The notes below the pieces were generated by a model. It saw only the letters and a list, made by a program, of their open reading frames with translations, was not told the DNA's origin and made no database searches. Both the position numbers and the translations under genes were made by a program. DNA of 64,000 bases from Alteraurantiacibacter aquimixticola (GTDB lineage: Bacteria; Pseudomonadota; Alphaproteobacteria; Sphingomonadales; Sphingomonadaceae), in contig NZ_SSHH01000004.1 in the NCBI RefSeq assembly GCF_004965515.1, forward strand, positions 154,599 to 218,598, in the 5' to 3' direction. How positions within the stretch are numbered: position 1 is the first letter of the stretch; each line of letters starts with the position of its first letter. Positions 41,408 to 54,813 of the stretch are shown in pieces.

Positions 41408-42220
41408 TTATTCAGTAGGGTACCCAAGGGAAACGAGCAAATCTCCGGCATGATCGACAAAGATCCTGTTCTGCTCCTCCGTCATCCTGCTGCGCCAGCC
41501 CTTTTTACCACCGCCACTCGCGCCGCCGGAAAACTGCGTGCCCTGCGCGCCGTTCCAGCTTCTGAGCGTGGCATGGACCTTCTCGACCGAACTGGCATCC
41601 ACCGCCGCCCGGATGTCCTCATCGCTCACTTCAAGTTCGCAAAAAGCGAATACGCTCGCAGCGGTAGCGACCGGCTCCCGCCGCATGTCCTCATAGCGGA
41701 TCAGCAACATGTTGGGATGGTCGCGATACTTCAGCCAGGAACCGACATTGTCGCGCCAGCTGCCATAGCGCATCCACCCGGTCGTCGCCTTTTTCATGAA
41801 TTCGTCGAAACTGCCGGGATAGGAATGGATGTGCCGGAAGTAATCGTAATAAGAGAGCGTCACATCCCGCCCGTCGCGGACAATATAGACCACCTTCCCT
41901 TCCAGGAAATAGGGCGCTGCGGGCAGGTGCGACTTGAAGAAACGCGGGCCATCACCCATCCGCGCCAGCCGTTCGCCGAATTCGAGCGCATCGATCGTCG
42001 GCTGCGCATCCTCTAACGCATCCATCGCATCGACATTGCCGCCATGCGTGACATGGTGAACGACGTGGCGCAGCCAGGTGTTGCCCGAACGGGGATAGGA
42101 AAAGAGGAAGCGGTCGCGCGGCTCGACCTGCATCCACGGAAGCCCGAGAAGCCTGTGTTTCAGGTCACGCCTGACCTTGCGGACATTCCGCCAGCCGCGC
42201 CCCAATCGCCCCAGCACCAT
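41408..42220 (-). CDS. PAPS-dependent sulfotransferase
   Basis: A 270-residue sulfotransferase. The 5'-phosphosulfate-binding loop is FSYPRSGNTWLRHVV and the 3'-phosphate-binding region is VYIVRDGRDVTLSYYDYF. The C-terminal KKGWRSRMTEEQ resembles the RKGxxGDWK PAPS motif of cytosolic sulfotransferases. It would sulfate a sugar or small molecule in the cytoplasm. It starts five bases after a GT2 gene, so the acceptor is probably the exopolysaccharide repeat unit; a lasso-peptide target is possible but less likely. Confidence 0.88.
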   Translation of the reverse strand: MVLGRLGRGWRNVRKVRRDLKHRLLGLPWMQVEPRDRFLFSYPRSGNTWLRHVVHHVTHGGNVDAMDALEDAQPTIDALEFGERLARMGDGPRFFKSHLPAAPYFLEGKVVYIVRDGRDVTLSYYDYFRHIHSYPGSFDEFMKKATTGWMRYGSWRDNVGSWLKYRDHPNMLLIRYEDMRREPVATAASVFAFCELEVSDEDIRAAVDASSVEKVHATLRSWNGAQGTQFSGGASGGGKKGWRSRMTEEQNRIFVDHAGDLLVSLGYPTE

Positions 42221-42225
42221 CGTCG

Positions 42226-43179
42226 CTAACCCTCGCCCCTGGGAATCGGCCCCGAGCGGATAGCGGGAAGATTGGCCCGGATCTCGCGCCAATAGCCGCG
42301 CAGTTCCCGTTTCGCTTCACCGCCCATGAGCGACCATGCAAAGCGCAGGTGGATGCGCAATGCGATCAGCTGCCTCACCAGCCAGCCTTCCACTTTCGGC
42401 AAATGCCGGCGGGCAATGGCCATGCGCGCGGCATAGACATAGGTTGCACGCATGGCGCGCAACTGAACGCTCTTGCCGCCATAATGGATGATGGTCGCCT
42501 CGGGCGTTATGCGCGGCCGCGCGCCAAGGTCCGCCGCCCGCAGGCACAGGTCCGTCTCCTCGCCAAACATGAAGAAAGCGGGGTCGAACCCACCCAGCTC
42601 GTTCCAGAAATCGCGCTCGATCAGGAAGAAGCAGCCGGAGACGATATCCACCTGCCTTTCGCTGTCCCGCTTCCAGCCGGCAATGCGCTCCGGATTGAAG
42701 AAGGTACTGTTGCGGAAGAGTTCGCTGATGCCCAGCGTCGAGAACAATACGCTGCGCAAGGTCATCCGGTCGGCGCAGGATGTCTCGTTCAGGGTGCGAT
42801 CGCCGAACAGGGTGCGCCCGCCCCAGATACGCGCCTCAGGAGTCCGGCGGGCAAAGGAAAGCAGCTTGTCGATGGCACCGTCGAGCGTGACCGTATCGCT
42901 GTTGAGCAGCAGGAGGTAGCGCCCCTGCGCAATCTCCGCCGCCTGGTTGTTGGCCATGGCAAAGCCGAGGTTGTCGCGGTTGGCCAGGATGCGAACCTGA
43001 GGAAAGCGCCGCCCGACTTCCTCGACCGTGCCGTCGTCCGAGGCGTTGTCGACCAGAATGATTTCGTAGCTGCTCACCGTCTCGCGGATCGCCGTTTCGA
43101 TGGCCGCGCAGGTCAACTCGCGTGTCTTGTAGTTGACCACAATGATGCTGACGTCCGGCGCATGCGGCTGTTCTGTCAT
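42226..43179 (-). CDS. Family 2 glycosyltransferase (rhamnosyltransferase-like)
   Basis: A 317-residue GT-A enzyme. VSIIVVNYKTRELTCAAIET begins the fold, ILVDNASDDGT and LLLLNSDTVTLDGA hold the nucleotide and metal-binding residues, and GGFDPAFFMFGEETDLCLRA carries the catalytic-base region. The pattern resembles dTDP-rhamnosyl transferases, which fits the rmlACDB genes 8 kb away; this is inference. It is co-transcribed with the sulfotransferase. Confidence 0.88.
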   Translation of the reverse strand: MTEQPHAPDVSIIVVNYKTRELTCAAIETAIRETVSSYEIILVDNASDDGTVEEVGRRFPQVRILANRDNLGFAMANNQAAEIAQGRYLLLLNSDTVTLDGAIDKLLSFARRTPEARIWGGRTLFGDRTLNETSCADRMTLRSVLFSTLGISELFRNSTFFNPERIAGWKRDSERQVDIVSGCFFLIERDFWNELGGFDPAFFMFGEETDLCLRAADLGARPRITPEATIIHYGGKSVQLRAMRATYVYAARMAIARRHLPKVEGWLVRQLIALRIHLRFAWSLMGGEAKRELRGYWREIRANLPAIRSGPIPRGEG

Positions 43180-43269
43180 CGAAATGGAAGGCCCTTGCCG
43201 AAATCTTCGCCGTTTGGGAGACACTATGGCCCGCAAGGCCGTGGTGCAAGTGCAGCAAATGGCAGAAGT

Positions 43270-43749
43270 TCAGTCTTTATGCCGGTCCGGGTCGAGCAGC
43301 ACCTCGAAATGCCCGATCTCGCCGCCCGTCACGGTGCGTTCGCCATAGCGCAGCCAGGCATGTGGTATGAAACCGGCATCCGGCCTGCCGTCGGCGCCGA
43401 TAACGATCTCGCTGGCGATCCCGCGCCGGAGAAGCATTTGCTGGCCTGCCAGCGCCTGCACAAGGCAGTCCGCCCGCCAGGGCACACGCTTGGCAACCCT
43501 TGGCACCAGCCAGGCCACTCTCGCCACCGCCTCGGCATCGCCTGACCTTGCTTCGCGGCAGTTTCGCCCGCGAGTTACGGCTTGCCCGTTCGCCTCGACC
43601 AAATCGCGCCCCACAAGGCCGCGCAGGCGCCATCGCGCGAAGGCGATCTCCAGCAAGGCCGCGCCCGTTCCCGTCGCCACCCAAGCGAACTTGGCCAGCG
43701 TCCATCCCTTCTCGGCCTGGGTCGTTTGCGGGGAGTTCCAGCGCGGCAT
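43270..43749 (-). CDS. Lasso peptide leader peptidase, B2 protein
   Basis: A 159-residue transglutaminase-like cysteine protease of the lasso B2 family (PF13471). Cys95 in WRADCLVQALAGQQML and His130 in GFIPHAWLRYG are the expected catalytic pair; the third acidic residue is not obvious (Glu144 is nearest). It cuts the leader from the precursor with help from the B1 protein. Here B1 and B2 are separate genes on opposite strands. The start is uncertain: a GTG at 43821 adds 24 residues that look unrelated. It is divergent from the cyclase unit. Confidence 0.9.
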   Translation of the reverse strand: MPRWNSPQTTQAEKGWTLAKFAWVATGTGAALLEIAFARWRLRGLVGRDLVEANGQAVTRGRNCREARSGDAEAVARVAWLVPRVAKRVPWRADCLVQALAGQQMLLRRGIASEIVIGADGRPDAGFIPHAWLRYGERTVTGGEIGHFEVLLDPDRHKD

Positions 43750-43893
43750 GCCCGCCCGACTGCCACTTTTGCTTCCGGCGGCCAAGGACCAATGGCGATA
43801 TGGGCCTGCGCGGGATGACACAGGCCGGAAAGCTCATTACCCATGCTAACAGCTGACCGACCGCATCGCTCGCGCGTCGCACGGAGGTAGACC

Positions 43894-44037
43894 ATGTTCC
43901 CGCCCGCCCTGAAGGAGCGCCTAAGCGACCCGGTCTTCCAGCAGAGGCACCTGCTGGCCGTTGCGATCGGCCTCGAGATGGAACCCTTTTGCAGCCTGTT
44001 CAAGCCATCTGTCGAAGCGGGCCCGAAGTTCAATTGA
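43894..44037 (+). CDS. 47-residue ORF upstream of the lasso cyclase
   Basis: A short reading frame from ATG with a strong GGAGG eight bases upstream, stopping 25 bases before the cyclase start. The protein is mixed, with a helical LKERLSDPVFQQRHLLAVAI followed by GLEMEPFCSLFKP. It has no lasso leader motif, no signal peptide and no recognised domain. The strong ribosome site and operon position argue for translation; it could be a small cluster protein or a leader that couples expression of the cyclase. Confidence 0.45.
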   Translation: MFPPALKERLSDPVFQQRHLLAVAIGLEMEPFCSLFKPSVEAGPKFN

Positions 44038-44062
44038 CCGATCGGCAGGGCAGGACAGCGCG

Positions 44063-45976
44063 TTGAGCGGCATCGTCGCCATCTTCGAGACATGCGGCGG
44101 CGAGGCGGAAGCCGGCGCCGTCGAGCAGATGGCCCGTGCGATGGAATATCGCGGGCTCGACGGCATGTCCTGCTGGACCCAGGGTCCGGTCGCGCTCGGC
44201 CATTGCGCGACATATTCGACTGCGGAAGAGCGCGAGGCCATCCAGCCGCATGCAAGCGAAGACGGGCGCGTCCGGCTCGTCCTCGACGGCTACCTGACCA
44301 ATATCGACGCGTTGCGGCGCGAACTCCGCGACCGGAAGATCGTGCTGCGCAATTCCTCCGATGCCGAAATTGTCCTGCGCGCCTGGGAATTGTGGGGCAG
44401 GGACTGTCCGCAAAGGCTGGAGGGAGAGTATGCCTTCATCCTCTGGGATGGTCGGTCCGGTGAGCTTTTCTGCGCCCGCGACCATCAGGGCCTGCGCCCC
44501 CTGCTCTACCATTTCGACGGCCGGCGGCTGCTGCTGGGCACCGATGCCGTGGCAATCCTGGCCGCCCTGCCGCATCGCCCCGCGCCCAATGCCGGATTTC
44601 TCACCGAGGTTCTCACCTTTCAGTGGTACAGCAGGGACGAGACTGTCTGGTCGGGCATCATGCGGCTGCCTCAGGCGCACAGCCTGCAAGCAAGCGGCAG
44701 CGGCCTGCGGATCGGGCAATACTGGCAGCTCGATACGTCCCGGCGCCTGACCTATGCGCGTGAGGACGATTATGCCGAGCACTATCGCGAACTGCTGGCC
44801 GAAGCCGTGCGCAGCTGCGCCCGCACCGACCGGCCGCTCGCCGTCGAGGCCAGCGGGGGGCTGGATTCCACCGCCTTGTTCTGCATGGCCCACCGATTGC
44901 AGGATAGCGGGACGCTGCCCGCACCGGAGGTTCGCGGCTACACCATGGCCGGCCCTCCTGGAACGCCTGCGGACGAGATCGAATATGTCCATGCCGTGGT
45001 CGAGGAACTGGGCGTGCCGGTTGCGGAGCATCCCTATTTCCTGCCCGATCTTGAATGGTTTGCAGCCAATGCCCGCCAGTCCTGCGACCTGCCATTGCCG
45101 CCCAACGGTGCCATTTCACTGACCGAGGAGAGGGCGATCGCCGCTGACGGCTGCCGGGCTTGCATGAACGGGCTTGGCGGCGACCAGTGGCTTGACGGAT
45201 CGGCCTATTACTATCTCGAATTCCTGCGCGCAGGAGACTGGCGCAAGCTGGCGCGCACCGTACGCGGAGACATCGCTGCACGCGGCTGGCACTGGACGGC
45301 GCGCGCGCTGACCCATTTCGGCGTCAGCCCAATGCTCTCACCCGGCCTTCGGTCCGCCGCGCGCCGGATCAAGGCCCTTGTGCCTCATCGCGCCAGGCCC
45401 AGCCAGGCACTGGAACTGACCGCGCCGGCCGCTGCCGAATTGCGCGATCGCCGGCAGCGTTATCTCGACAGCCTGCCCAGCGACCGCCAGGCGCGGTTGA
45501 AGCTGGAAAAGCTCGCCCACCCCTATTGGTCGAGCATGTATGACATGAATTCCCGGCAGGCCGCGCTCAATGGCCTGTCGCAAAGGCATCCCATGCTCAG
45601 CAGGCCCTATATCGAATTCATGGCCGCCGTGCCCGAACACCTGCTGCTGCGACGCGGCGTGCGCAAATGCCTGCACCGGGATGCCCTTGCCGGAATCCTG
45701 CCTGAAAAGGTGCGTCTGCGGACCAGCGAGGGAACCACCGACCAGGTGTTCCATCGCCTTTCCGAACCCATGATAGCGCAGCTGCGATCGCCGGAAGGCC
45801 AAAGCCTGGCGAGGCTCATCGTACCACAGGAACTGGAACGGACGATCGGGGAGTATTGCAGCGCAGCAATTGACAATAGGTCGCTGCTGGCACTATGGCC
45901 CATCTACGTGATCTTCACGATTTTGGGGATATCCGGGGGCGCTTCATTTTTTCAGGAAGGTGACAATGGCCAATAA
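44063..45976 (+). CDS. Lasso peptide macrocyclase (asparagine-synthetase-like, C protein)
   Basis: A 637-residue asparagine synthetase B homologue. The N-terminal glutaminase-like domain starts MSGIVAIFE, with Ser in place of the catalytic Cys2, so it cannot hydrolyse glutamine. The C-terminal domain has the ATP-pyrophosphatase motif SGGLDS at 264-269 and NGLGGDQWLDGSAYYY. In lasso biosynthesis this enzyme adenylates the ring Asp/Glu side chain and closes the macrolactam. The start is a TTG with AGGA upstream, matching the family N-terminus. Its last 11 bases overlap the precursor gene. Confidence 0.92.
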   Translation: MSGIVAIFETCGGEAEAGAVEQMARAMEYRGLDGMSCWTQGPVALGHCATYSTAEEREAIQPHASEDGRVRLVLDGYLTNIDALRRELRDRKIVLRNSSDAEIVLRAWELWGRDCPQRLEGEYAFILWDGRSGELFCARDHQGLRPLLYHFDGRRLLLGTDAVAILAALPHRPAPNAGFLTEVLTFQWYSRDETVWSGIMRLPQAHSLQASGSGLRIGQYWQLDTSRRLTYAREDDYAEHYRELLAEAVRSCARTDRPLAVEASGGLDSTALFCMAHRLQDSGTLPAPEVRGYTMAGPPGTPADEIEYVHAVVEELGVPVAEHPYFLPDLEWFAANARQSCDLPLPPNGAISLTEERAIAADGCRACMNGLGGDQWLDGSAYYYLEFLRAGDWRKLARTVRGDIAARGWHWTARALTHFGVSPMLSPGLRSAARRIKALVPHRARPSQALELTAPAAAELRDRRQRYLDSLPSDRQARLKLEKLAHPYWSSMYDMNSRQAALNGLSQRHPMLSRPYIEFMAAVPEHLLLRRGVRKCLHRDALAGILPEKVRLRTSEGTTDQVFHRLSEPMIAQLRSPEGQSLARLIVPQELERTIGEYCSAAIDNRSLLALWPIYVIFTILGISGGASFFQEGDNGQ

Positions 45977-46115
45977 CACCCATTCTGCATCGGCTTCTGC
46001 CCGCCGGGAATACAGGCAGCCCAAACTCACCGTGTTCGGATCGGTCCGCAACCTTACGGGTGGCAGTGCCGGACCGAACGGGGATGTGATGGGCACCTTC
46101 ATGGCGATGCCCTGA
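45966..46115 (+). CDS. Lasso peptide precursor (A)
   Basis: A 49-residue precursor. The leader has YRQPKLTVFGSVRNLTG, the YxxPxLxxxG recognition motif, with Thr31 at the -2 position. Cleavage after Gly32 would release the core GSAGPNGDVMGTFMAMP (17 residues). Asp8 can form an 8-residue macrolactam with Gly1, leaving a 9-residue tail with three Met and a Phe that could act as steric locks. AGGAAGGTG precedes the ATG. It overlaps the cyclase stop. The core has no Arg, Lys, Cys or terminal Ser. Confidence 0.9.
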   Translation: MANNTHSASASARREYRQPKLTVFGSVRNLTGGSAGPNGDVMGTFMAMP

Positions 46116-46152
46116 TCGGCGCCTTCACCCCGGCGGGGAATAGCCACGCATC

Positions 46153-47280
46153 ATGGTTTCCCCGCTTGACGAACATCACGGATATCTCAGCCTCGCTGGC
46201 CGGTCGGAGCTATATGACCGCGCTATCGGGGCTGTCTTGCGCCCGGGCGATACGGTCGCGGACCTGGGCTGCGGCGTCGGCGTTCTTGGCCTGCAATGCC
46301 TCGATGCAGGTGCTGCGCATGTCTATGGCATAGACTATTCGGACGCGATCGAACTGACGCGGGAAACCGTCGCCCGGGCCGGGCTGGAAGATCGCTATAG
46401 CTGCCTGCGTGAATCGACTTTCCGGGTGGAATTGCCCGAAAGGGTCGACGTCGTCATCTGCGACCATATCGGCTATTTCGGCTTCGATTACGGTATTGGC
46501 GAGATGATGGCCGATGCCAGGCGAAGGCTGCTCAAGCCGGGCGGCGCCATGATCCCGCGCAGCATCGATCTCATCATGGCGGGCGTATCTTCCGATGGCT
46601 GCCGGAAGCTGGCGCAAGGATGGACGGGCGAGACTTTCCGCGAGGAATATCACTGGCTTAACTCCTATGCGCGCAATGCCAAGCACCCTTGGCTCTTCAA
46701 GCCCGAGGAACTGTGCTCGCAGCCCGTGCGGATGGGAACGATCCGCCTGGACAGCGACAATAGCGACCACTTCGCCATGACTGCGACGCTGGAAGTCGAG
46801 CGCGATTGCCGCTTCGACGGGCTGGCCGGCTGGTTCGACTGCGAGCTGGCCGAAGGCGTGCGCATGACCAACTCGCCTCTTTCCCCCGAAGCGATCGAGC
46901 GCAACAATGTGTTCCTCCCATGCAACGAACCGTTCGATGCCGCCGCCGGGGACCTGATCGAGGTGGACTTGCGGTTTCGCGACGACGGCGAAATGATCGC
47001 GTGGTCGGTCACGCCTGCCAATGGCGGCGCGAAGCAGAGCATGTCGACCTGGAAGAGCAAGATCCTCACCCAGGCGGACATGGTTGCCGATTCCGCAAAG
47101 CCGTTATCGCTCAATCGCATTGGCGAGGCGCGCAAGGCCGTTCTCAAGCTGGTCGATGGCAAGCGGACGGCAGCGGAAATAGAGGAAGCGGTCCTTGCCG
47201 ATCACGCGGACCTGTTCCCAACCGCAGAGGAATGGCGCCGGTTCCTGCGGCACGAACTGGGCAATTGCGTGAAATGGTGA
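46153..47280 (+). CDS. PRMT-like SAM-dependent methyltransferase in the lasso cluster
   Basis: A 375-residue class I methyltransferase with a protein-arginine-methyltransferase-like architecture. YLSLAGRSELYDRAI matches the PRMT N-terminal helix, VADLGCGVGVLGL is motif I, and a beta-barrel-like region follows LLKPGGAMIPRS. The double-E loop is altered: Asp104 in CDHIGYFGFDYG replaces the first Glu and Tyr113 the second. The last ~75 residues (AVLKLVDGKRTAAEIEEAVL) resemble a PqqD/winged-helix module that could bind the leader. It starts 37 bases after the precursor. The target is unknown. Confidence 0.8.
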   Translation: MVSPLDEHHGYLSLAGRSELYDRAIGAVLRPGDTVADLGCGVGVLGLQCLDAGAAHVYGIDYSDAIELTRETVARAGLEDRYSCLRESTFRVELPERVDVVICDHIGYFGFDYGIGEMMADARRRLLKPGGAMIPRSIDLIMAGVSSDGCRKLAQGWTGETFREEYHWLNSYARNAKHPWLFKPEELCSQPVRMGTIRLDSDNSDHFAMTATLEVERDCRFDGLAGWFDCELAEGVRMTNSPLSPEAIERNNVFLPCNEPFDAAAGDLIEVDLRFRDDGEMIAWSVTPANGGAKQSMSTWKSKILTQADMVADSAKPLSLNRIGEARKAVLKLVDGKRTAAEIEEAVLADHADLFPTAEEWRRFLRHELGNCVKW

Positions 47281-48143
47281 TCGAGCAGCCGACGATCTCC
47301 ATTCGCCCGCAGCATGCCATCGCAAGCGCGCCTTTCGATCGCTGGCGCTCGCCCGATGGCGATACGATCGCGGAATTCTATCGCCTCGACGGCCGCTATC
47401 TCATCCGCTTCCCGGGGCGGGCGGATTTCGAGGTGGAAGCGGCAAGTCTTGCGGTCAGCTGTTTCGCGGCTGCGGAGGACATGGAGGGAGCTGCCATGGC
47501 CCTGCTCCACAATGCGGTGGAACCGATGATCGGCAACCATTCGGGACGCCTGCACCTGCATGGAAGCGCGGTCGCGGTCGATGGCACTGGGATTGCGTTT
47601 GCGGGCCTTTCGCGCCGGGGCAAGACCACGCTCGCCGCATCCTTCGCACGCGCCGGATACCCCTTCCTGACCGAGGACGTCATCGCCCTCACCAAGCGGG
47701 AGGATGGCACATATCTCGTCGCGCCGGCCCGGCCATCGCTCCGCCTCTTCTCCGACAGCGAGGAACAGCTCTTCGGCGAGGCCGCGGCTTGCGCCGGGAC
47801 GGATGCCAAGCGGGAAATCGATGCGAGCCGCCTTCTGCCTTTCGCGAATGCTCCCGTGCCGCTGGGCGGGATCTACATCCTTGGCCCCGGGGAATGCGAG
47901 GCGCTGACGATCGAGCCCGTGAGCAGCCAGGACGCGCTGGCGGAACTGATGCAGCATGCATTCATCCTCGATGTGGAAGACAAGCCACGATTGCAGGCGC
48001 ATTTCAGCCGCTGCAGCGACCTTGCCCTGCATACAAGGTGCTACAGGCTGGATTACCCGCGCGACTACGATGCGCTGCCGCAGATCATCGACGGGCTGGC
48101 GCGACATGCCCGGGAAGAACGGACAGGCGATGAAAGCGAGTGA
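47274..48143 (+). CDS. HPr-kinase-like enzyme of the lasso cluster
   Basis: A 289-residue homologue of the HPrK C-terminal kinase domain. LHLHGSAVAVDGTGIAFAG leads into a P-loop GLSRRGKT at 111-118, and FLTEDVIAL carries the acidic catalytic region. Related lasso-cluster kinases (paeninodin PadeK type) phosphorylate the hydroxyl of a C-terminal serine in the precursor. No regulatory HPrK N-terminal domain is present. The ATG overlaps the methyltransferase stop, and the 3' end overlaps the B1 gene by 14 bases, so three genes are tightly coupled. Confidence 0.85.
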   Translation: MVIEQPTISIRPQHAIASAPFDRWRSPDGDTIAEFYRLDGRYLIRFPGRADFEVEAASLAVSCFAAAEDMEGAAMALLHNAVEPMIGNHSGRLHLHGSAVAVDGTGIAFAGLSRRGKTTLAASFARAGYPFLTEDVIALTKREDGTYLVAPARPSLRLFSDSEEQLFGEAAACAGTDAKREIDASRLLPFANAPVPLGGIYILGPGECEALTIEPVSSQDALAELMQHAFILDVEDKPRLQAHFSRCSDLALHTRCYRLDYPRDYDALPQIIDGLARHAREERTGDESE

Positions 48144-48414
48144 CATCCTGACAGCTTCCGAAGACGCGATCGCCCGCGAGGTCGGCGGCGAGCTGGTGCT
48201 GATGCATCTCGCCAGCGGGACCTATTTCGGGTTGAATGCCGTCGGCGCACGCATCTGGCAGCTGCTGGAAGCAGGCGAGCAGTCGCTGGCAGGTCTCTGC
48301 AGGACAATCGTCACCGAATTCGATGCCCCCGCCGATGTTATCGAGCACGACATTGCCGCCCTCGCCGGGGATCTGGAAGAGCACGAACTGGTGACGCGCC
48401 GAGCTGGCAGCTGA
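48130..48414 (+). CDS. Lasso peptide RRE protein B1 (PqqD-like)
   Basis: A 94-residue PqqD-family protein. A small winged-helix module is indicated by LVLMHLASGTYFGLNAVGAR IWQ and LAGDLEEHELV at the C-terminus. As a stand-alone RRE it binds the leader and presents the precursor to B2, and possibly to the tailoring enzymes. The start lies inside the 3' end of the kinase gene. It is convergent with the exporter gene over a 12-base gap. Confidence 0.88.
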   Translation: MKASDILTASEDAIAREVGGELVLMHLASGTYFGLNAVGARIWQLLEAGEQSLAGLCRTIVTEFDAPADVIEHDIAALAGDLEEHELVTRRAGS

Positions 48415-48426
48415 CTACAGGGAAAG

Positions 48427-50088
48427 CTATGACCGGGCCTGCCCACCCGGTCGATCATCGACTACCCGGCCATGCTCCATGCGGATAATCCGATGGGCCA
48501 GGGCGAGGCTGGCGGGACGATGGGTGATCAGGATGACCGTCCGGCCGGCAAGCGCGTCCCGGCATTGCTGCACGAATGCCTGCTCGGCCTCGGAATCGAA
48601 CATCGCGGTTGCCTCATCGAAGACCAGGACCGGCGGATCGGCAAGCAGTGCGCGGGCGAGCGCGATACGCTGGCGCTGACCGCCCGAGAGGCGCACACCG
48701 TGATCGCCGATCCGTGTATCCAGCCCTTGCGGCAGGGCCGTGACGAAGTCCGTCGCCTGTGCAAGCCGCAAGGCACGCTCGAGGACTTTTGCCCCCGCAT
48801 CGGGATGGCCGAAGCAGATATTCTCGCGCACCGATCCAGCGAACAGCAGCGCCCTTTGCGGGACGACCCCGACAGACTGACGCAGCGCCTGCACCTGAAA
48901 GCTGGCGACATCCCGCCCGTCCAGCGCGATCCGGCCTGCGTCGGGCCTGTAGAACTGCAACAGCAGGCTGATGAGGGTCGATTTGCCCGCGCCGTTCTCC
49001 CCGGTAATCGCAATCACCTGGCCCCGCGGAATAGTCAGGCTGAAATCGGTGAGGACTTCCGGGCGACCGGGATAGGCAAAGGACACCGCGTCGAACACGA
49101 TATCGCCCCGCGGGATCGCAGTCTCGCCGCTGGCATATCCAGGCTCTTCCTCCTCATGCAGGACCGCCTCGAGCTTCTCCAGCGTTCCGCCGGCAAAGCG
49201 GTAGCGTCCGTAAAGGTCGGCAAGGGCGCCGACAGGACGCGTGAGCAGGGCCGCATAGAGCAGAAAGCTGAACAGCTCGGCGGGGCTGCGCTGCGGATCC
49301 ATGGCCACTCCCGCGAGGAGGATCACCGCGATCGCGGCGAGCGCGGCGAGAAGCGCAATGAGCGGGCCCAGCAAGGCGCTGAGCCTGGCCTGTTGCAGGT
49401 TCAGCTGCCGCGAGCTTTCCGCGTGTTGCGCGAAGCGCGCGACCATCTGCTCCTCCATCGCGAAGGACTTGGTCGCAGGCACCAGTTCAAGCTGAGTCTC
49501 GGCAAATGAGATCAGGGTGGCATCGGCATCGCGTGCCTGACCGCCAAGCAGGCGCAGCCTGCGTCCGATCAATCGCAGCGCGATATAGAATACCGGCACC
49601 ACCAGCGGTACGAACAGTGCAACTCTCGGCTCGATGGCAAACAGCAGGATCACGGCCCCGATAGCCGTCAGTACCTGCGATGGCGCCTTCGCCATCGTGG
49701 CCGAGAGAAACTCGCTGAGATTGACGACTTCCCAGGTGGTAACCGACAGCAGGTCGCCGGCGTGACTGCGATGATGGTAACCCATCGGCAGGCGCTGGAC
49801 ATGTTCGATCGCTTCGGTGCGCAACGCCGCCAGCGCGCGGCCCGATGCGGCGGCGGACAGGATCGATACGGCAATGGTGAGCGCCGTCATGACGACGAGA
49901 GCCACCACCAGCAGCACTATGGCCCATGTCTGGTCGGTTGTCGCGCCCTCCACCACGCCGCCCAGGACGCTACCCGCCAGCCAGGGGATGGCGAGCGTCG
50001 TTACGGACGACAGCACGGTCAGCAAGCTGATGGCCAGCAGCTGGCCGCGATAGGGCGCAGCCCGGCGCAGGAGTGAGCGCAGCTTCAT
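48427..50088 (-). CDS. ABC exporter of the lasso cluster (D)
   Basis: A 553-residue half-transporter with six membrane helices in the first ~310 residues and an ATPase domain (Walker A TGENGAGKSTLISLLL, signature RLSGGQRQRIALARALL, Walker B VLVFDEATAMFD). There is no N-terminal C39 peptidase domain, consistent with processing by B1/B2. It would export the mature lasso peptide and give self-immunity. It overlaps the nucleotidyltransferase gene by four bases (ATGA), so the two form one unit. Confidence 0.9.
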   Translation of the reverse strand: MKLRSLLRRAAPYRGQLLAISLLTVLSSVTTLAIPWLAGSVLGGVVEGATTDQTWAIVLLVVALVVMTALTIAVSILSAAASGRALAALRTEAIEHVQRLPMGYHHRSHAGDLLSVTTWEVVNLSEFLSATMAKAPSQVLTAIGAVILLFAIEPRVALFVPLVVPVFYIALRLIGRRLRLLGGQARDADATLISFAETQLELVPATKSFAMEEQMVARFAQHAESSRQLNLQQARLSALLGPLIALLAALAAIAVILLAGVAMDPQRSPAELFSFLLYAALLTRPVGALADLYGRYRFAGGTLEKLEAVLHEEEEPGYASGETAIPRGDIVFDAVSFAYPGRPEVLTDFSLTIPRGQVIAITGENGAGKSTLISLLLQFYRPDAGRIALDGRDVASFQVQALRQSVGVVPQRALLFAGSVRENICFGHPDAGAKVLERALRLAQATDFVTALPQGLDTRIGDHGVRLSGGQRQRIALARALLADPPVLVFDEATAMFDSEAEQAFVQQCRDALAGRTVILITHRPASLALAHRIIRMEHGRVVDDRPGGQARS

Positions 50089-51290
50089 CGGCCCCGCCTT
50101 CCCGTGAACAGCCGCAGCCCGGCGGAAAGCAGTCTGTATAGATGCTGCAACGGCATCGGCCAGCCGCTCGCTTCCGGATATCTGCGCTCTATCTGCGACC
50201 GCGACGGGAATACCCGCACCCTGAACAGTTCCAGTTTTTCTTCGGGCGTTTCCAGGGCCGCCAGATCGGCCCGCAATCGCGCGAGCGCATTGGTTTCGGC
50301 AAGATGGTCGGCGATCGGGTTGGCCCCCTGTGCCGCCTCGAGATCCGCGACGGCAGACTCGCAAAGGGTCGTGCCGAAAGACGCCTGCGCGCCGCGCAAC
50401 GACGTCAGAATCGCGCCGGCCAGGCCCCGCTCGCAGGCGAGGCGACCCAGTTCCCGCCATTGCCCCTCGGTCAGCGAGGGGGCCAGCAGATGCGTGTCCA
50501 TCCGCCAGATCAGCCGGTCGCCCTCATGATGCCTCTGCGCACCTGCGATGTAACCATGGACGATGTGCAGCTCCCGATTGATGGCTCCCCTGAGGAGCTG
50601 CAATACCGGATCCAGCGTGCGGGCGTGTCCCGCAAGGCGCTCAAGCGGAATGGCATGCGCGAAACACTCGTCATGGCCGATCAGGCGGCGCAGGGACGGG
50701 GAACCGATGACCTCCCAATGCAGGTCGATGGCATGGACAAAGCCGATCCCGGTGTCGCGGACCCAGACCTCCTGCCCGAAATGGGCATCGCTTATGCGCT
50801 CCAGTCCGGCGGCGGCCATCACCTGTCGCGCCTTGCGCAGATCGCTCCGCGCCACCAGCAGGTCGGTATCGCCACGCCGCCTGGTCGCTGGCCTGTCATA
50901 GACAGAATAGGCGAGCGCGGTTCCCTTCATCACCAGCGCGGGGATTCCCTGCTCGTCGAGCCGGTCGAGAAGCGCGATGACGACCTCGCGATGCGATTCC
51001 TCCCACAAGACCTGGTGCCGCGCTTCTTCGAGGACACTTTCGCGCAGGTCTTCGGGCCATGAGCGCAACCCCGCATCCGCGTCGCACAGTGCAAGGGCAA
51101 TGCCGTGAAACTCGATCCGTTGCCACACGCTATCGGCAGCAACATCGAGGTCGAAGGCAGGCGATGCGGTGCTTTCGGGTGCGGCCAGTGCTTGCGCAAG
51201 GAAGGCATCGATATTCGCTATCGCCACCGGTGGTGTGCGGGAGCCTTCCGGCAATTGGCCTGTTTGCCTGTCGTCACGACTGGCCTGCAT
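50085..51290 (-). CDS. Nucleotidyltransferase-family protein (PF14907-type)
   Basis: A 401-residue protein of the uncharacterised nucleotidyltransferase family NTP_transf_5. Key segments are ALVMKGTALAYSVYD and RRRGDTDLLVARSDLRKA (the metal-binding DxD). Relatives occur in exopolysaccharide and lasso clusters; one, from the pseudomycoidin cluster, modifies a C-terminal serine hydroxyl with phosphate units. The ATG at 51290 has GGGGA upstream; an in-frame 51500 start adds 70 unlikely residues. It is divergent from rmlA. Confidence 0.82.
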   Translation of the reverse strand: MQASRDDRQTGQLPEGSRTPPVAIANIDAFLAQALAAPESTASPAFDLDVAADSVWQRIEFHGIALALCDADAGLRSWPEDLRESVLEEARHQVLWEESHREVVIALLDRLDEQGIPALVMKGTALAYSVYDRPATRRRGDTDLLVARSDLRKARQVMAAAGLERISDAHFGQEVWVRDTGIGFVHAIDLHWEVIGSPSLRRLIGHDECFAHAIPLERLAGHARTLDPVLQLLRGAINRELHIVHGYIAGAQRHHEGDRLIWRMDTHLLAPSLTEGQWRELGRLACERGLAGAILTSLRGAQASFGTTLCESAVADLEAAQGANPIADHLAETNALARLRADLAALETPEEKLELFRVRVFPSRSQIERRYPEASGWPMPLQHLYRLLSAGLRLFTGRRGR

Positions 51291-51484: not shown

Positions 51485-52378
51485 GTGAAGCAGACCGCAC
51501 GCAAAGGCATCATCCTGGCTGGGGGAACGGGAACGCGGCTCTATCCGCTGACCAAGGGCGTTTCAAAACAGCTGATGCCCGTCTTCGACAAGCCGATGAT
51601 CTATTACCCGCTGAGCACGCTCATGCTCGCCGGAATCCGCGAAATACTCGTCATCACCACACCCGAGGACGAGGAGGCCTTTCGCCGGGTGCTGGGTGAC
51701 GGATCGTCCTTCGGCGTGGAGCTGTCCTACGCCGTCCAGCCGAGCCCGGACGGGCTTGCACAAGCCTTTCACATCGGGGCGGATTTCCTTGCCGGACATC
51801 CCAGCGCACTGATCCTGGGCGACAATATCTTTTACGGCCACGGCCTGCCCGAATTGCTCGCAAGCGCCAACCGGCAGGAGAGCGGCGCGAGCGTCTTCGC
51901 CTATCGCGTGAACGATCCCTGCGCCTATGGCGTGGTCGAATTCGGTCCGGACGGCAGGGCAATCTCGATCGAGGAAAAGCCGGTCCGGCCCAAGTCCAAT
52001 TATGCGGTGACGGGCCTCTATTTCTATGACGGCACAGTCGTCGATCGCGCACGGGACCTGACGCCTTCGGCTCGCGGCGAACTCGAGATTACCGACCTCA
52101 ACCGCCTCTACCTCGAAGAGGGACAGCTGGCTGTGGAAATCATGGGCCGCGGATTTGCCTGGCTCGATACCGGTACGCACCAGTCGCTGCTCGATGCGGC
52201 AAGCTATGTCCGCATTACCGAGGAGCGGCAGGGGCTGAAGATCTGCTGCCCAGAGGAAATCGCCTGGCGGCAGGGCTTCATCGATGACGCTCAGCTGGAA
52301 AGTATCGCCGCGCCGCTGATCAAGTCGGGCTATGGCGAATACCTGATGCAACTCCTGCACAGTAAGGGCTACGCATGA
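51485..52378 (+). CDS. rfbA: Glucose-1-phosphate thymidylyltransferase
   Basis: A 297-residue Rml[21 protein letters not shown] is the nucleotide-binding signature, [18 protein letters not shown] the next conserved segment, and LGDNIFYG binds metal. It makes dTDP-glucose, the first step to dTDP-L-rhamnose. A GTG start has AAGGGAAT upstream. It heads the rmlACDB operon, in which every gene overlaps the next. Confidence 0.97.
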
Positions 52379-52920
52379 AGGTCGAGCCTTGCGCGATCCC
52401 CGGCCCGCTGGTGATCGAACCGGATGTCTATGGCGACGATCGCGGCTTCTTCATGGAAAGCTGGAACCGCGCCGCATTCGCCGCAGCCGGCCTCGACGTG
52501 GATTTCGTGCAGGACAATCACAGCCGCTCGCAAAAGGGCGTCTTGCGCGGCCTCCATTTCCAGGACCCCGGCGCGCAGGGCAAGCTGGTGCGAGTGGTTC
52601 ACGGCGCGGTGTTCGATGTCGCGGTGGATCTGCGCAAGGGTTCACCCACTTTCGGCAAATGGGTGGGCGTCGAACTGTCGGCAACGAACAAGCGCCTGTT
52701 CTGGGTTCCGCGCGGCTTTGCGCACGGCTTCCTGACGCTGGAGGACGGGACCGACTTCCTCTACAAATGCGATGCGCCCTACGCGCCGCAGCACGAACAC
52801 ACGCTGGCCTGGGACGATCCCGAAATCGGCATAGAGTGGCCTCTCGACGGCCTCTCGCCAATCCTTTCCGGCAAGGACCGTGACGGTCAGGCATTGGCCG
52901 ATGTGACGGCCTTCCTGTGA
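52375..52920 (+). CDS. rfbC: dTDP-4-dehydrorhamnose 3,5-epimerase
   Basis: A 181-residue cupin epimerase. [18 protein letters not shown] carries the catalytic His pair region, [20 protein letters not shown] the barrel core and [16 protein letters not shown] the second half. It converts dTDP-4-keto-6-deoxyglucose to the L-lyxo form. It overlaps rfbA and rfbD by four bases each. Confidence 0.97.
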
Positions 52921-53765
52921 ACATCCTGATCACCGGAGCCGCTGGCCAGCTGGGCCGGGCGCTGCTCGCCACCGCGCCGGAAGGGGTTCACGTTTCATAC
53001 GTCGACCGGACCGATTGCGATCTGACCGATCCGCGCGCCGTGCGTGAGCTGGTCAGGCATGTTTCGCCGGACATCGTCATCAATGCGGCCGCCTTCACCG
53101 CGGTCGACGCCGCGGAAAGCGACGAAGCAGCCGCCAGCGCCGTCAATACCGAAGCCGTCGCCACGCTCGTGGCCGAACATCAGGGCAAGCTCGTCCATGT
53201 CTCGACCGATTTCGTGTTCGACGGGACCTCCAGCCGCGCCTATCGCCCGGACGATCCGCGCAACCCCCTGTCAGCCTATGGCCGCACCAAGGCCGCGGGC
53301 GAGGACGCCTTGCGCCCGGGTGACCTGCTGGTCCGTACCAGCTGGATCCATTCCGCCGGAGGCGCGAATTTCGTGCGCACCATGCTGCGGCTGATGCGCG
53401 AAAGGGAAGAGCTCGCCGTGGTCGCCGACCAGATCGGCGCGCCAACCTGGGCGCCCGGCCTTGCCCGCACGATCTGGGGCCTGCTGGACAAGAATGCCTG
53501 CGGCACCTTCCATCACAGCGATGCAGGCGTGGCCAGCTGGTATGATTTTGCCGTTGCGATCCAGGAGGAGGCGCTGGCGCTTGGCTTGCTCAAGCGGGCC
53601 ATCGCCATCCGCCCCATCGCCACGGCAGACTATCCCACGCCGGCCACCCGCCCAGCCTTTTCTCTACTCGATTGCAGCGCTACGCGTGCCCTGCTGCAGG
53701 ATGGCGACGTACACTGGCGCGTCAACCTGCGCAGGATGTTGGAAGAGGAAGCACAGTTTGGCTAA
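52917..53765 (+). CDS. rfbD: dTDP-4-dehydrorhamnose reductase
   Basis: A 282-residue SDR enzyme. [19 protein letters not shown] binds NAD(P)H, VHVSTDFVFDG supplies the Ser/Thr, and YGRTKAAGE holds the Tyr-Lys pair. It performs the last step to dTDP-L-rhamnose. The GTG start overlaps the rfbC stop, and the stop is inside the first codons of rfbB. Confidence 0.96.
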   Translation: MNILITGAAGQLGRALLATAPEGVHVSYVDRTDCDLTDPRAVRELVRHVSPDIVINAAAFTAVDAAESDEAAASAVNTEAVATLVAEHQGKLVHVSTDFVFDGTSSRAYRPDDPRNPLSAYGRTKAAGEDALRPGDLLVRTSWIHSAGGANFVRTMLRLMREREELAVVADQIGAPTWAPGLARTIWGLLDKNACGTFHHSDAGVASWYDFAVAIQEEALALGLLKRAIAIRPIATADYPTPATRPAFSLLDCSATRALLQDGDVHWRVNLRRMLEEEAQFG

Positions 53766-54813
53766 TCTGCTCGTCACTGGGGGTGCCGGTTTTATCGGCG
53801 GGAACTTCGTCCATTACTGGGCGGACCGTCACCCCGGCGATGCGCTTATCGTGCTCGATTGCCTGACCTATGCCGGCAACAGGTCTACGATTGCCGGGGT
53901 CGAGCAGGCCGAACTGGTCGTCGGCGATATCCGCGATACCGCCCTGGTCGAAGAGCTGCTTCGAACGCGCGACATCGCAACCATCGTGCACTTCGCCGCC
54001 GAAAGCCATGTGGACCGGTCGATCAGCGGGCCCGATGCCTTTATCGACACCAATATCCTGGGCACCAACAGCCTGCTGAAGGCTGCCCGTTCCGTCTGGC
54101 TGGACGATGGCAGCGGCAAGCCGCACCGCTTCCACCATATCTCCACCGACGAGGTCTACGGATCGCTCGGCCCCGAGGATCCCGCCTTCAGCGAGACTAC
54201 TCCCTACGCGCCCAATTCGCCCTATTCGGCGTCAAAGGCCTCTTCCGACCATCTGGTGCGTGCCTATCACCACACCTTCGGCCTGGATGTCACGACCAGC
54301 AATTGCTCGAACAATTACGGGCCCTATCAATATCCGGAAAAGCTGATCCCCCTCTTCCTGCTGAACGCGCTGCATGGCCGCCACCTGCCCATTTACGGCG
54401 ACGGAATGAATGTGCGCGACTGGCTTTATGTCGAGGATCACTGCCGCGGGATCGATGCATGCCTCAACCGGGGCAAGCCCGGTGAGACCTATAATATCGG
54501 CGGCGGCGAGGAATTGCCCAACATGGCTGTGATCGACCGCATCTGCGCCGAAGTAGACCGCGCCTTCGCGACGATCGACGGGCTTGCAGCACGCTTTCCC
54601 GATGCCCCGGCCGCCAGCGGGAAGCCGACCGCCGGGCTCAAGACATTCGTCGAGGACCGCAAGGGCCACGATCGGCGCTATGCGATCGACGAGACGAAAG
54701 CGCGCGACGAACTGGGCTATGTGCCGCAGCACGATTTCGAACAGGGCCTGGCCGATACCTTGCGATGGTATCTGAACAATGAGGACTGGTGGCGGCCCCT
54801 GCAATCGCGGTAA
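53758..54813 (+). CDS. rfbB: dTDP-glucose 4,6-dehydratase
   Basis: A 351-residue RmlB. LLVTGGAGFIGGNFVHYW binds NAD, HISTDEVYGSL and YSASKASSDHLV contain the Ser/Thr-Asp-Glu and Tyr-Lys catalytic residues, and NNYGPYQYPEKLIPLFL is diagnostic. It makes dTDP-4-keto-6-deoxyglucose. The TTG start (GGAAGAGGAA upstream) overlaps the rfbD end by eight bases. It converges on the flippase gene with an 18-base gap. Confidence 0.96.
   Translation: MANLLVTGGAGFIGGNFVHYWADRHPGDALIVLDCLTYAGNRSTIAGVEQAELVVGDIRDTALVEELLRTRDIATIVHFAAESHVDRSISGPDAFIDTNILGTNSLLKAARSVWLDDGSGKPHRFHHISTDEVYGSLGPEDPAFSETTPYAPNSPYSASKASSDHLVRAYHHTFGLDVTTSNCSNNYGPYQYPEKLIPLFLLNALHGRHLPIYGDGMNVRDWLYVEDHCRGIDACLNRGKPGETYNIGGGEELPNMAVIDRICAEVDRAFATIDGLAARFPDAPAASGKPTAGLKTFVEDRKGHDRRYAIDETKARDELGYVPQHDFEQGLADTLRWYLNNEDWWRPLQSR

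What the first reader, a model, noticed from the sequence alone, without database searches (positions are those of the whole stretch)
43270..51290. Complete lasso-peptide cluster with an unusual set of tailoring enzymes
B2, cyclase, precursor, B1 and exporter are all recognisable, and between them lie a PRMT-like methyltransferase, an HPr-kinase-like enzyme and a PF14907-type nucleotidyltransferase. Kinase and nucleotidyltransferase each occur in characterised lasso clusters (paeninodin and pseudomycoidin types), but I know of no characterised product that combines both with such a methyltransferase. B1 and B2 are split and on opposite strands, and there is no isopeptidase/TonB receptor pair as in many sphingomonad clusters.
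Basis: partly seen in the sequence, partly recalled or inferred. Interest (0 to 1): 0.9.

Follow-up and report, generated by a model that had tools for sequence, protein, structure and literature searches.

The report
Lasso peptide cluster with methionine-linked methyltransferase
A bacterium carries a complete gene set for a knotted 'lasso' peptide with three tailoring enzymes, one of which, a methyltransferase shaped like those that methylate arginine in animals, goes in related bacteria almost always with methionine in the peptide's tail, which points to a chemical mark not yet known on such peptides.

Summary
Confirmed: 43270-51290 is a complete lasso-peptide cluster: B2(-); cyclase C, precursor A, methyltransferase M, HPr-kinase-like K and PqqD-type B1 (+, overlapping); exporter D and PF14907 protein N (-). 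Predicted core GSAGPNGD-VMGTFMAMP, ring Gly1-Asp8 (inferred). M is a PRMT by fold and profile but lacks the second acid of the double-Glu loop and the THW motif; most cores lack Arg, so it is probably no arginine methyltransferase. M recurs in 54 non-redundant loci, M-K-B1 in order in 48, mainly Sphingomonadales, also other Proteobacteria and one Cyanobium contig. All 55 cores found there contain Met, 54 in the tail; sister clusters of the same architecture without M have 10 unique cores, none with tail Met, all with Arg/Lys in the tail. On the cyclase tree M and tail Met each change four times, never against each other, but supported events are too few for significance. Best reading: M methylates tail methionine (S-methyl sulfonium); K phosphorylates a ring Ser/Thr instead of the C-terminal Ser of paeninodin-type peptides. 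Unexpected: 16 related precursors are fused after the core to a Peptidase_S74 domain, the self-cleaving phage tail-spike chaperone. New variant of a known kind; chemistry untested.

The parts
43270..43821 (-). B2, leader peptidase (transglutaminase-like), GTG start
   Evidence: NF033537 64.5 bits (cut-off 33), PF13471
44063..45976 (+). C, lasso cyclase (asparagine-synthetase-like), TTG start
   Evidence: PF00733, PF13537 over cut-off; NF033535 288 bits, under its cut-off of 525
45966..46115 (+). A, precursor, 49 aa: leader MANNTHSASASARREYRQPKLTVFGSVRNLTG, core GSAGPNGDVMGTFMAMP (Tyr at -17, Thr at -2, ring acid Asp8; boundary inferred)
   Evidence: NF033521 19.1 (cut-off 19); leader YxxPxL..GSVRNLTG shared with relatives
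46153..47280 (+). M, PRMT-fold SAM methyltransferase with a three-helix C-terminal extension
   Evidence: Profile vs PDB: PRMT3 3.1e-33; AlphaFold2 pLDDT 89; Foldseek PRMT6/PRMT3; loop CDHxGxxGxDYG instead of the PRMT double-Glu loop
47274..48143 (+). K, HPr-kinase-like precursor kinase; start overlaps end of M
   Evidence: PF07475 4.6e-4 and TIGR04352 1.2e-9, both under cut-off; His, P-loop GKT and E-D motif
48130..48414 (+). B1, PqqD-type leader-binding protein; start overlaps end of K
   Evidence: PF05402 62.3 bits; NF033536 under cut-off
48427..50088 (-). D, ABC exporter (membrane + ATPase)
   Evidence: PF00664, PF00005
50085..51290 (-). N, PF14907 nucleotidyltransferase-like protein
   Evidence: PF14907 79.9 bits, cut-off 31.2
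51485..54813 (+). rmlA, rmlC, rmlD and rmlB-type dTDP-rhamnose genes beside N; role in the product unknown
   Evidence: TIGR01207, TIGR01221, TIGR01214, TIGR01181 over cut-off; an rfbA-like gene in 24 of the 44 M loci that hold N

Best explanation
The cluster makes a three-fold tailored lasso peptide. B1 binds the leader and presents the precursor to the tailoring enzymes and to B2; B2 cuts after Gly(-1); C closes Gly1 to Asp8; D exports. K phosphorylates a ring hydroxyl near the N-terminus (here Ser2), N extends the phosphate (sugar or nucleotide), and M transfers methyl from SAM to the thioether of tail methionine(s) (Met10, Met14, Met16), giving S-methylmethionine sulfonium and so a permanent positive charge where M-less sisters carry Arg or Lys. 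Shown here: the genes, the PRMT fold of M (model), loss of arginine-type hallmarks, recurrence of A-M-K-B1, association of M with tail Met. Inferred: lasso topology and core boundary, phosphosite, what N adds, and that Met sulfur is the methyl acceptor.
For: Met in 55 of 55 cores of M loci and in 54 of 55 tails; 24.6% of tail residues are Met; only Gly is as universal. Sister clusters of the same architecture without M: 0 of 10 unique tails with Met, 10 of 10 with K/R. G276 and G391: the main cluster has no M and a core without tail Met (GSGTMFRDGAVNNSRF), while M sits elsewhere with a second, Met-tailed precursor. Careful cyclase tree: 4 changes of M and 4 of tail Met; in 200 random pairings tail Met never goes against M. 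Arg in only 17 of 55 cores. For K: C-terminal Ser in 1 of 55 cores of M loci against 14 of 15 far control cores; Ser/Thr at core position 2-3 in 48 of 55. Precedent: BsfK phosphorylates Ser3 of a core without C-terminal Ser (PMC10368454; abstract, passages, sections 10, 22, 26). PsmN puts hexoses on the phospho-Ser (PMC9266682, passages).
Against: No chemistry. Few independent events: 2 supported pairs in the careful tree, 3 in the quick one, sign test p 0.5 and 0.25. L072 has Met in the ring only. A distant PRMT-like relative (M2) has Met in 3 of 4 cores and none in L164. L165 holds a PRMT-like gene (86 bits to my M model) beside a kinase, and the one core candidate of that locus, 9 kb away, has no Met. 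Two doubtful far-control candidates with tail Met (L160, L162) were left out of the 15 counted. L047 has a short M with no precursor found. Met-rich tails could be kept for another reason: two long tails carry 9 and 10 Met, more than methylation would ask for.
Confidence: 0.5

Rival explanations
1. M methylates the C-terminal carboxylate, as StspM does and LasF is thought to do in lassomycin-type clusters; the Met-rich tail is only a recognition or membrane feature.
For: C-terminal carboxyl methylation is the known lasso O-methylation (PMC9266682, PMC8498205, passages); in S74-fused relatives a new C-terminus would arise exactly after the tail.
Against: StspM was modelled on a mitomycin O-methyltransferase (PMC9266682, passages), M is a PRMT by profile and fold; the C-terminal residue varies widely in the cores listed (P, I, G, L, M, V, F, N, A, K and others) while Met is constant.
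Confidence: 0.2
2. The Met-rich tails serve another purpose (Cu(I) binding, redox sensing, membrane contact), and M methylates something else: phosphate, backbone amide or a ring residue.
For: 35 of 55 tails have MM or MxM, a motif known from copper proteins (recalled); K is present in 51 of 54 M loci, so a phosphate methyl ester is conceivable.
Against: Sister clusters keep K and N but lack M and tail Met together; A and M can stand without K, C or B1 within the 19 kb fetched (L033, L035).
Confidence: 0.25
3. M is a true arginine methyltransferase.
For: Fold and profile.
Against: Second Glu of the double-Glu loop and THW motif absent; no K/R at all in 30 of 55 cores; tail K/R in 22 of 55 with M against 10 of 10 sisters without. 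The leader Arg (GSVRNLT) remains possible but is there in the M-less sisters too.
Confidence: 0.04
4. The cluster is decayed or silent and yields no tailored product.
For: K and C score under their family cut-offs; the bsf cluster gave no product in the hosts tried (PMC10368454, section 22).
Against: All frames open, overlapping starts, motifs of K kept; the nearest relative found, L051 (M 66% identical), keeps the design and a parallel core GSTGPNGDTMSTFMQMP.
Confidence: 0.06

Closest known systems
bsf lasso cluster, Bradymonas sediminis (BsfA, B1, B2, C, D, K, N)
   Same: Same set except M; Gly1-Asp8 ring; kinase acts near the core N-terminus (Ser3), not at a C-terminal Ser
   Different: No methyltransferase; Ile(-2) instead of Thr(-2); core GTSGNEVDGSTPADRGNNPGD has no Met
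Pseudomycoidin cluster (PsmK, PsmN)
   Same: Kinase plus nucleotidyltransferase-type N
   Different: C-terminal Ser is the phosphosite; no methyltransferase mentioned in the passages seen
Paeninodin / SyanA-type phosphorylated lasso peptides
   Same: HPr-kinase-like tailoring kinase; SyanK is from a sphingomonad
   Different: Phosphorylated at a conserved C-terminal Ser; here the core ends in Pro
Lassomycin / StspM C-terminal O-methylated lasso peptides; PIMT-type lasso methyltransferases (cellulonodin-2, lihuanodin)
   Same: Methyltransferase in a lasso cluster
   Different: Other enzyme families (by description in reviews) and other target groups
Type I PRMTs (PRMT1, 3, 6, CARM1)
   Same: Profile match over residues 8-288, same fold by model
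   Different: Second Glu of the double-Glu loop and THW lost; three-helix C-terminal extension
Intramolecular chaperone auto-cleavage (ICA, Peptidase_S74) domains of phage tail spikes and MYRF
   Same: Fused C-terminally to relatives' precursors with Ser and Lys(+5) kept
   Different: There they mature large trimeric proteins; here they follow a lasso core of about 17 aa; absent in the window's own precursor

Membership tests
Lasso peptide cluster | B2 leader peptidase | tested here: met
   NF033537 64.5 bits, cut-off 33
Lasso peptide cluster | Asparagine-synthetase-like cyclase | tested here: inconclusive
   PF00733 over cut-off; lasso model NF033535 288 bits against a cut-off of 525; homologues lie in the same gene context
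Lasso peptide cluster | RRE / PqqD-type B1 | tested here: met
   PF05402 62.3 bits, cut-off 23.4; lasso-specific PqqD models under cut-off
Lasso peptide cluster | Precursor: YxxPxL leader, Thr(-2), Gly/Ala1, acid at 7-9 | tested here: met
   NF033521 19.1, cut-off 19; sequence: Y-17, P-14, L-12, T-2, G1, D8
Lasso peptide cluster | Threaded lariat product | not testable with these tools
   Needs NMR or MS of the product
Protein arginine methyltransferase (PRMT) | PRMT fold | tested here: met
   PRMT3 3.1e-33; the 50 listed Foldseek matches are all PRMTs
Protein arginine methyltransferase (PRMT) | Double-Glu loop (SEWMGYxxxxESM) | tested here: not met
   CDHIGYFGFDYGI: first Glu is Asp, second is Tyr; both invariant in the 14 aligned members; motif role recalled
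Protein arginine methyltransferase (PRMT) | THW loop | tested here: not met
   PRMT3 KTHWKQTVF aligns with consensus ESIKRSQAF; motif name recalled
Paeninodin-type lasso kinase | C-terminal Ser in the core | tested here: not met
   Core ends in Pro; 1 of 55 cores of M loci ends in Ser
Lasso precursor kinase (PadeK/BsfK kind) | His, G(x4)GK[S/T], D-D motif | tested here: met
   HGS...GLSRRGKT...ED, with the first Asp replaced by Glu
PF14907 NTP_transf_5 (PsmN/BsfN kind) | Curated model | tested here: met
   79.9 bits, cut-off 31.2; no direct comparison with PsmN or BsfN was made
Peptidase_S74-fused lasso precursor (relatives) | PF13884 over cut-off after the core | tested here: not met
   Met in 10 of 10 fused relatives scanned, but absent from the window's precursor and from its whole genome
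RRE domain in the M C-terminus | Similarity to B1/PqqD | tested here: inconclusive
   hhalign probability 5%, 21 columns

The most novel reading that the evidence does not exclude
M founds a family of PRMT-fold peptidyl-methionine S-methyltransferases that make sulfonium-bearing lasso peptides, with S-methylmethionine standing in for arginine; and in a branch of the family the core's C-terminus is set by a fused self-cleaving phage-type S74 chaperone, a follower protease of a kind not known to me in any lasso precursor.
Probability: 0.38. Interest if true: 0.87.

Novelty: new variant of a known kind. Interest (0 to 1): 0.72.

Why it matters
If M acts on methionine, lasso peptides gain a modification that puts a fixed charge and a reactive sulfonium in a knotted scaffold, and the PRMT fold gains a new acceptor. 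The family-wide link between enzyme and residue makes the substrate question directly testable. The S74 fusion in relatives would link a phage/MYRF self-cleaving trimerisation domain to peptide maturation and explain how those cores get their C-terminus.

Tried and rejected
Arginine methylation: rejected on hallmark loss, Arg-poor cores and K/R-rich tails where M is absent. Paeninodin-type C-terminal phosphorylation: rejected, core ends in Pro. PqqD/RRE nature of the three-helix end of M: suggested by eye, hhalign gave 5%, dropped. rfbA adjacency as a functional sign: in 24 of 44 N-bearing M loci, but not seen in the Beta- and Gammaproteobacterial loci, so perhaps location only; left open. Structure of the S74-fused precursor: mean pLDDT 69, blocks from residue 51 on 74-89; Foldseek best MYRF ICA 7dc3, prob 0.99 but E only 0.014; the sequence profile hit 7dc3 at 1.8e-6. 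First genome-contig scan with M alone found nothing; the alignment scan worked. Literature (open-licence full texts only): 'lasso peptide' with 'Peptidase S74' 0 papers; with 'arginine methyltransferase' 1 paper, seen in the listing, not read; in the S-methylmethionine/sulfonium search none of the 10 listed of 55 contains 'lasso peptide'.

Of the 15 far control cores 14 come from these and one from L165, which holds a distant PRMT-like gene, so it is not a clean control (without it: 1 of 14 with tail Met, 13 of 14 ending in Ser). Candidates in L137, L157, L160 and L162 were left out as doubtful; those of L160 and L162 have a tail Met (with these two: 3 of 17). Of 54 M loci L037 and L047 gave no precursor; 10 duplicates between genome search and genome contigs were removed, none left at 97% identity. 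L196 (isolated C + precursor ending in Met, in an M+ genome) and L198 (orphan fused precursor with Met-bearing tail, in an M+ genome) are outside the counts. Seven M loci without a usable C (L033, L035, L044, L077, L079, L087, L088) are not in the quick tree; L055, L075, L083, L085, L091 and the far controls were left out of the careful one. Cores were picked by eye from the pattern searches.
Full report
What is there. Between 43270 and 51290 lie eight genes: B2 (43270-43821, -), cyclase C (44063-45976, +), precursor A (45966-46115, +), methyltransferase M (46153-47280, +), kinase K (47274-48143, +), B1 (48130-48414, +), exporter D (48427-50088, -) and N (50085-51290, -). C/A, M/K, K/B1 and N/D overlap, as in coupled operons. 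B2, B1, N and D pass curated models; C passes general models but not the lasso-cyclase one, K stays under its cut-offs, and A just reaches the lasso-leader model. Beside N lie rmlA, C, D, B-type genes, and upstream a GT2 and a sulfotransferase gene. Apart from the ORFs of C and D none of 550 aa or more is listed from 32450 to 61967, so there is no full-length TonB receptor next to it.

Precursor. Tyr, Pro and Leu of YxxPxL at -17, -14, -12 (positions as described in PMC10368454, section 22) put Thr at -2 and give the core GSAGPNGDVMGTFMAMP with Asp8 as ring acid. Relatives fit: ring acid at 8 in 46, at 9 in 8 and at 7 in 1 of 55 cores.

How widespread. M orthologues (E under 1e-80) occur in 17 of the other 395 genomes of the order sample. 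An alignment scan of genome contigs gave 53 loci, of which L097-L103 are weak. Together 54 non-redundant loci carry M: K in 51, B1 in 50, C in 49, N in 44, B2 in 33 (E 1e-5, counted anywhere in the locus; some loci are short). M, K and B1 stand in this order on one strand in 48 of 54. Record titles name mostly Erythrobacter, Porphyrobacter, Aurantiacibacter and Novosphingobium, further Beta-, Gamma- and other Alphaproteobacteria, many of them MAGs, and one Cyanobium contig.

What M is. Its profile matches PRMT3 at 3.1e-33 over residues 8-288; the model has pLDDT 89 and the 50 Foldseek matches listed are all PRMTs. But the loop that in PRMTs holds two Glu reads CDH(I/V)GxxGxDYG, with Asp for the first Glu and Tyr for the second, and the THW stretch reads SIxRSQA in the consensus (motif roles recalled). 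The acids that hold guanidinium are thus not kept. A three-helix C-terminal extension looked PqqD-like by eye, but profile comparison gives no support.

What goes with M. I collected 55 cores from 52 of the 54 M loci (counted in 61, 96). All 55 contain Met and 54 have it in the tail; Met makes up 24.6% of tail residues. Apart from Gly (and the ring acid, Asp or Glu, by selection) no other residue is universal (S 51, D 50, T 44, A 38, R 17, K 13). Thirty cores have no Lys or Arg at all.

Controls. Far controls: 15 cores from loci with a kinase and without M proper; 1 has a tail Met and 14 end in Ser, against 1 of 55 cores of M loci ending in Ser. One of the 15, L165, holds a distant PRMT-like gene (86 bits), and two doubtful candidates with tail Met (L160, L162) were left out. 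Near controls are better: a cyclase search and fetch gave clusters of the same architecture and leader (GSVRNLTG) but without M: L186-L195, with L183 and L184. Their 10 unique cores have no tail Met, and all 10 tails have Lys or Arg. Fisher's exact p is 6e-11 for 54 of 55 against 0 of 10, but the rows are related. On the careful cyclase tree (57 rows) M and tail Met change 4 times each; on supported branches there are 2 independent pairs (3 in the quick tree), in which tail Met goes with M or does not differ, never against it; that is too few for significance. In G276 and G391 the main cluster lacks M and has a core without tail Met, while M stands elsewhere in the genome with a second, Met-tailed precursor and no cyclase, kinase or B1 in the 19 kb fetched. 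This split ties M to A rather than to K. Against it, L047 has a short M and no precursor was found.

A looser relative. L048-L050 and L164 hold a second PRMT-like methyltransferase, M2 (matches to M of 26-31% identity). Its loop has Asp for the first Glu in all four, while the second is Glu in L050 and L164 and Gln in L048 and L049. Three of its four cores have Met; L164 (SGTQPPTENGGQPQKHP) has none. The Met rule therefore holds for M, not for every PRMT-like enzyme in lasso clusters.

Mechanism. The acceptor must be something nearly all cores have: Met sulfur, the C-terminus, the backbone, or a Ser/Thr (55 of 55 have one). Only Met also tracks M. S-methylation gives a fixed positive charge, which would replace the Arg/Lys of the M-less sisters (inference). 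K stays where M is absent, and C-terminal Ser is rare in both sets (1 of 55, 1 of 10); Ser or Thr at position 2-3 is present in 48 of 55 cores, and Ser2 in 10 of 10 sisters, so I expect a ring phosphosite as for BsfK Ser3 (PMC10368454, abstract and passages). N would act on the phosphate by analogy with PsmN (PMC9266682, passages); untested. Rough odds: lasso cluster 0.97; M acts on the core 0.85; on Met sulfur 0.5; K on a ring Ser/Thr 0.6; N on the phosphate 0.5.

A second surprise in relatives. In 16 loci the precursor runs on in frame after the core into some 75 residues of a Peptidase_S74 (chaperone of endosialidase) domain: 14 M loci, the M-less cluster L195 and the orphan L198. Pfam PF13884 is over cut-off in 10 of the 10 that I scanned; the other six rest on my own S74 or precursor profile. 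The profile of the fused precursors hits the MYRF ICA domain (7dc3, 1.8e-6) and a phage tail fibre (6f45, 3.6e-5). In MYRF and phage endosialidases Ser and the Lys five residues on are the self-cleavage dyad, with an Arg that stabilises the oxyanion (PMC3742443, passages). Here Lys(+5) is invariant in 13 aligned members and Ser is kept in 12, Cys standing in L075; the Arg of (G)RQFG is invariant too (that it is the oxyanion Arg is not shown). Cutting before that Ser leaves 14 cores of median length 17, the same median as the short precursors. In L062 a TAG stop stands exactly at the Ser position, with the S74 frame still open behind it. So self-cleavage, or a stop at the same place, probably sets the core's end. 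The window's own precursor has no such domain, and its genome has no PF13884 match.

Known and new. Kinase + N without M is known (psm, bsf); lasso methylation at the C-terminus and by PIMTs is known (PMC9266682, PMC8498205, passages). A PRMT-fold methyltransferase in lasso clusters, its tie to tail Met, and S74-fused precursors I did not find in print with searches (open-licence texts only, mostly listings; the paeninodin and pseudomycoidin originals are not held). I file it as a new variant of a known kind.

Noticed in passing
L032:8404-8787, L036:10410-10790, L040, L052, L058, L075, L076, L077, L083, L084, L090, L091, L093, L096, L195, L198: Lasso precursors fused in frame after the core to a Peptidase_S74 self-cleaving chaperone domain; in L062 a stop codon stands exactly at the S74 Ser position.
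   Followed up: yes
L033 and L035 against L184 and L183 (genomes G391, G276): A-M pair with a Met-tailed core far from the M-less main cluster, whose own core has no tail Met.
   Followed up: partly
L198 (G012), L196 (G345): Orphan precursors with Met-bearing tails in genomes that carry M elsewhere; in the M cluster of G345 (L037) I found no local precursor, so processing in trans is possible.
   Followed up: no
51485-54813; L183, L184, L186-L191, L194, L195: N stands near an rfbA/rmlA gene in 24 of 44 N-bearing M loci and in 10 of 12 M-less sister loci; here a whole rmlACDB set. May supply a dTDP-sugar to N or be mere location.
   Followed up: partly
L048, L049, L050, L164: Second PRMT-like methyltransferase (M2) in lasso clusters with Ala/Ser1-Glu8 cores; first Glu of the double-Glu loop is Asp in all four, second kept in L050 and L164; Met in 3 of 4 cores.
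   Followed up: partly
L165:7699-14000: Distant PRMT-like gene (86 bits to the M model) with two kinase-like genes and a PqqD-like gene; nature of the system unknown.
   Followed up: no
L040/L068, L044/L080, L072, L047: M match ends early (residues 305-321) by stop, frame change or end of homology, so the C-terminal helical extension is missing; L072 is also the one M locus without tail Met.
   Followed up: no
L109, L141: B2-like gene next to rfbA without other lasso genes found, perhaps cluster remnants.
   Followed up: no
41408-43236 (-): Sulfotransferase (PF00685) and GT2 genes directly upstream of B2; probably polysaccharide genes, but sulfotransferase genes are reported beside some lasso clusters (PMC8498205, passages).
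   Followed up: no
L054:9722-9967, L086:2095-2358: Very Met-rich long tails (10 and 9 Met in 26 and 25 residues), possibly metal-binding.
   Followed up: no
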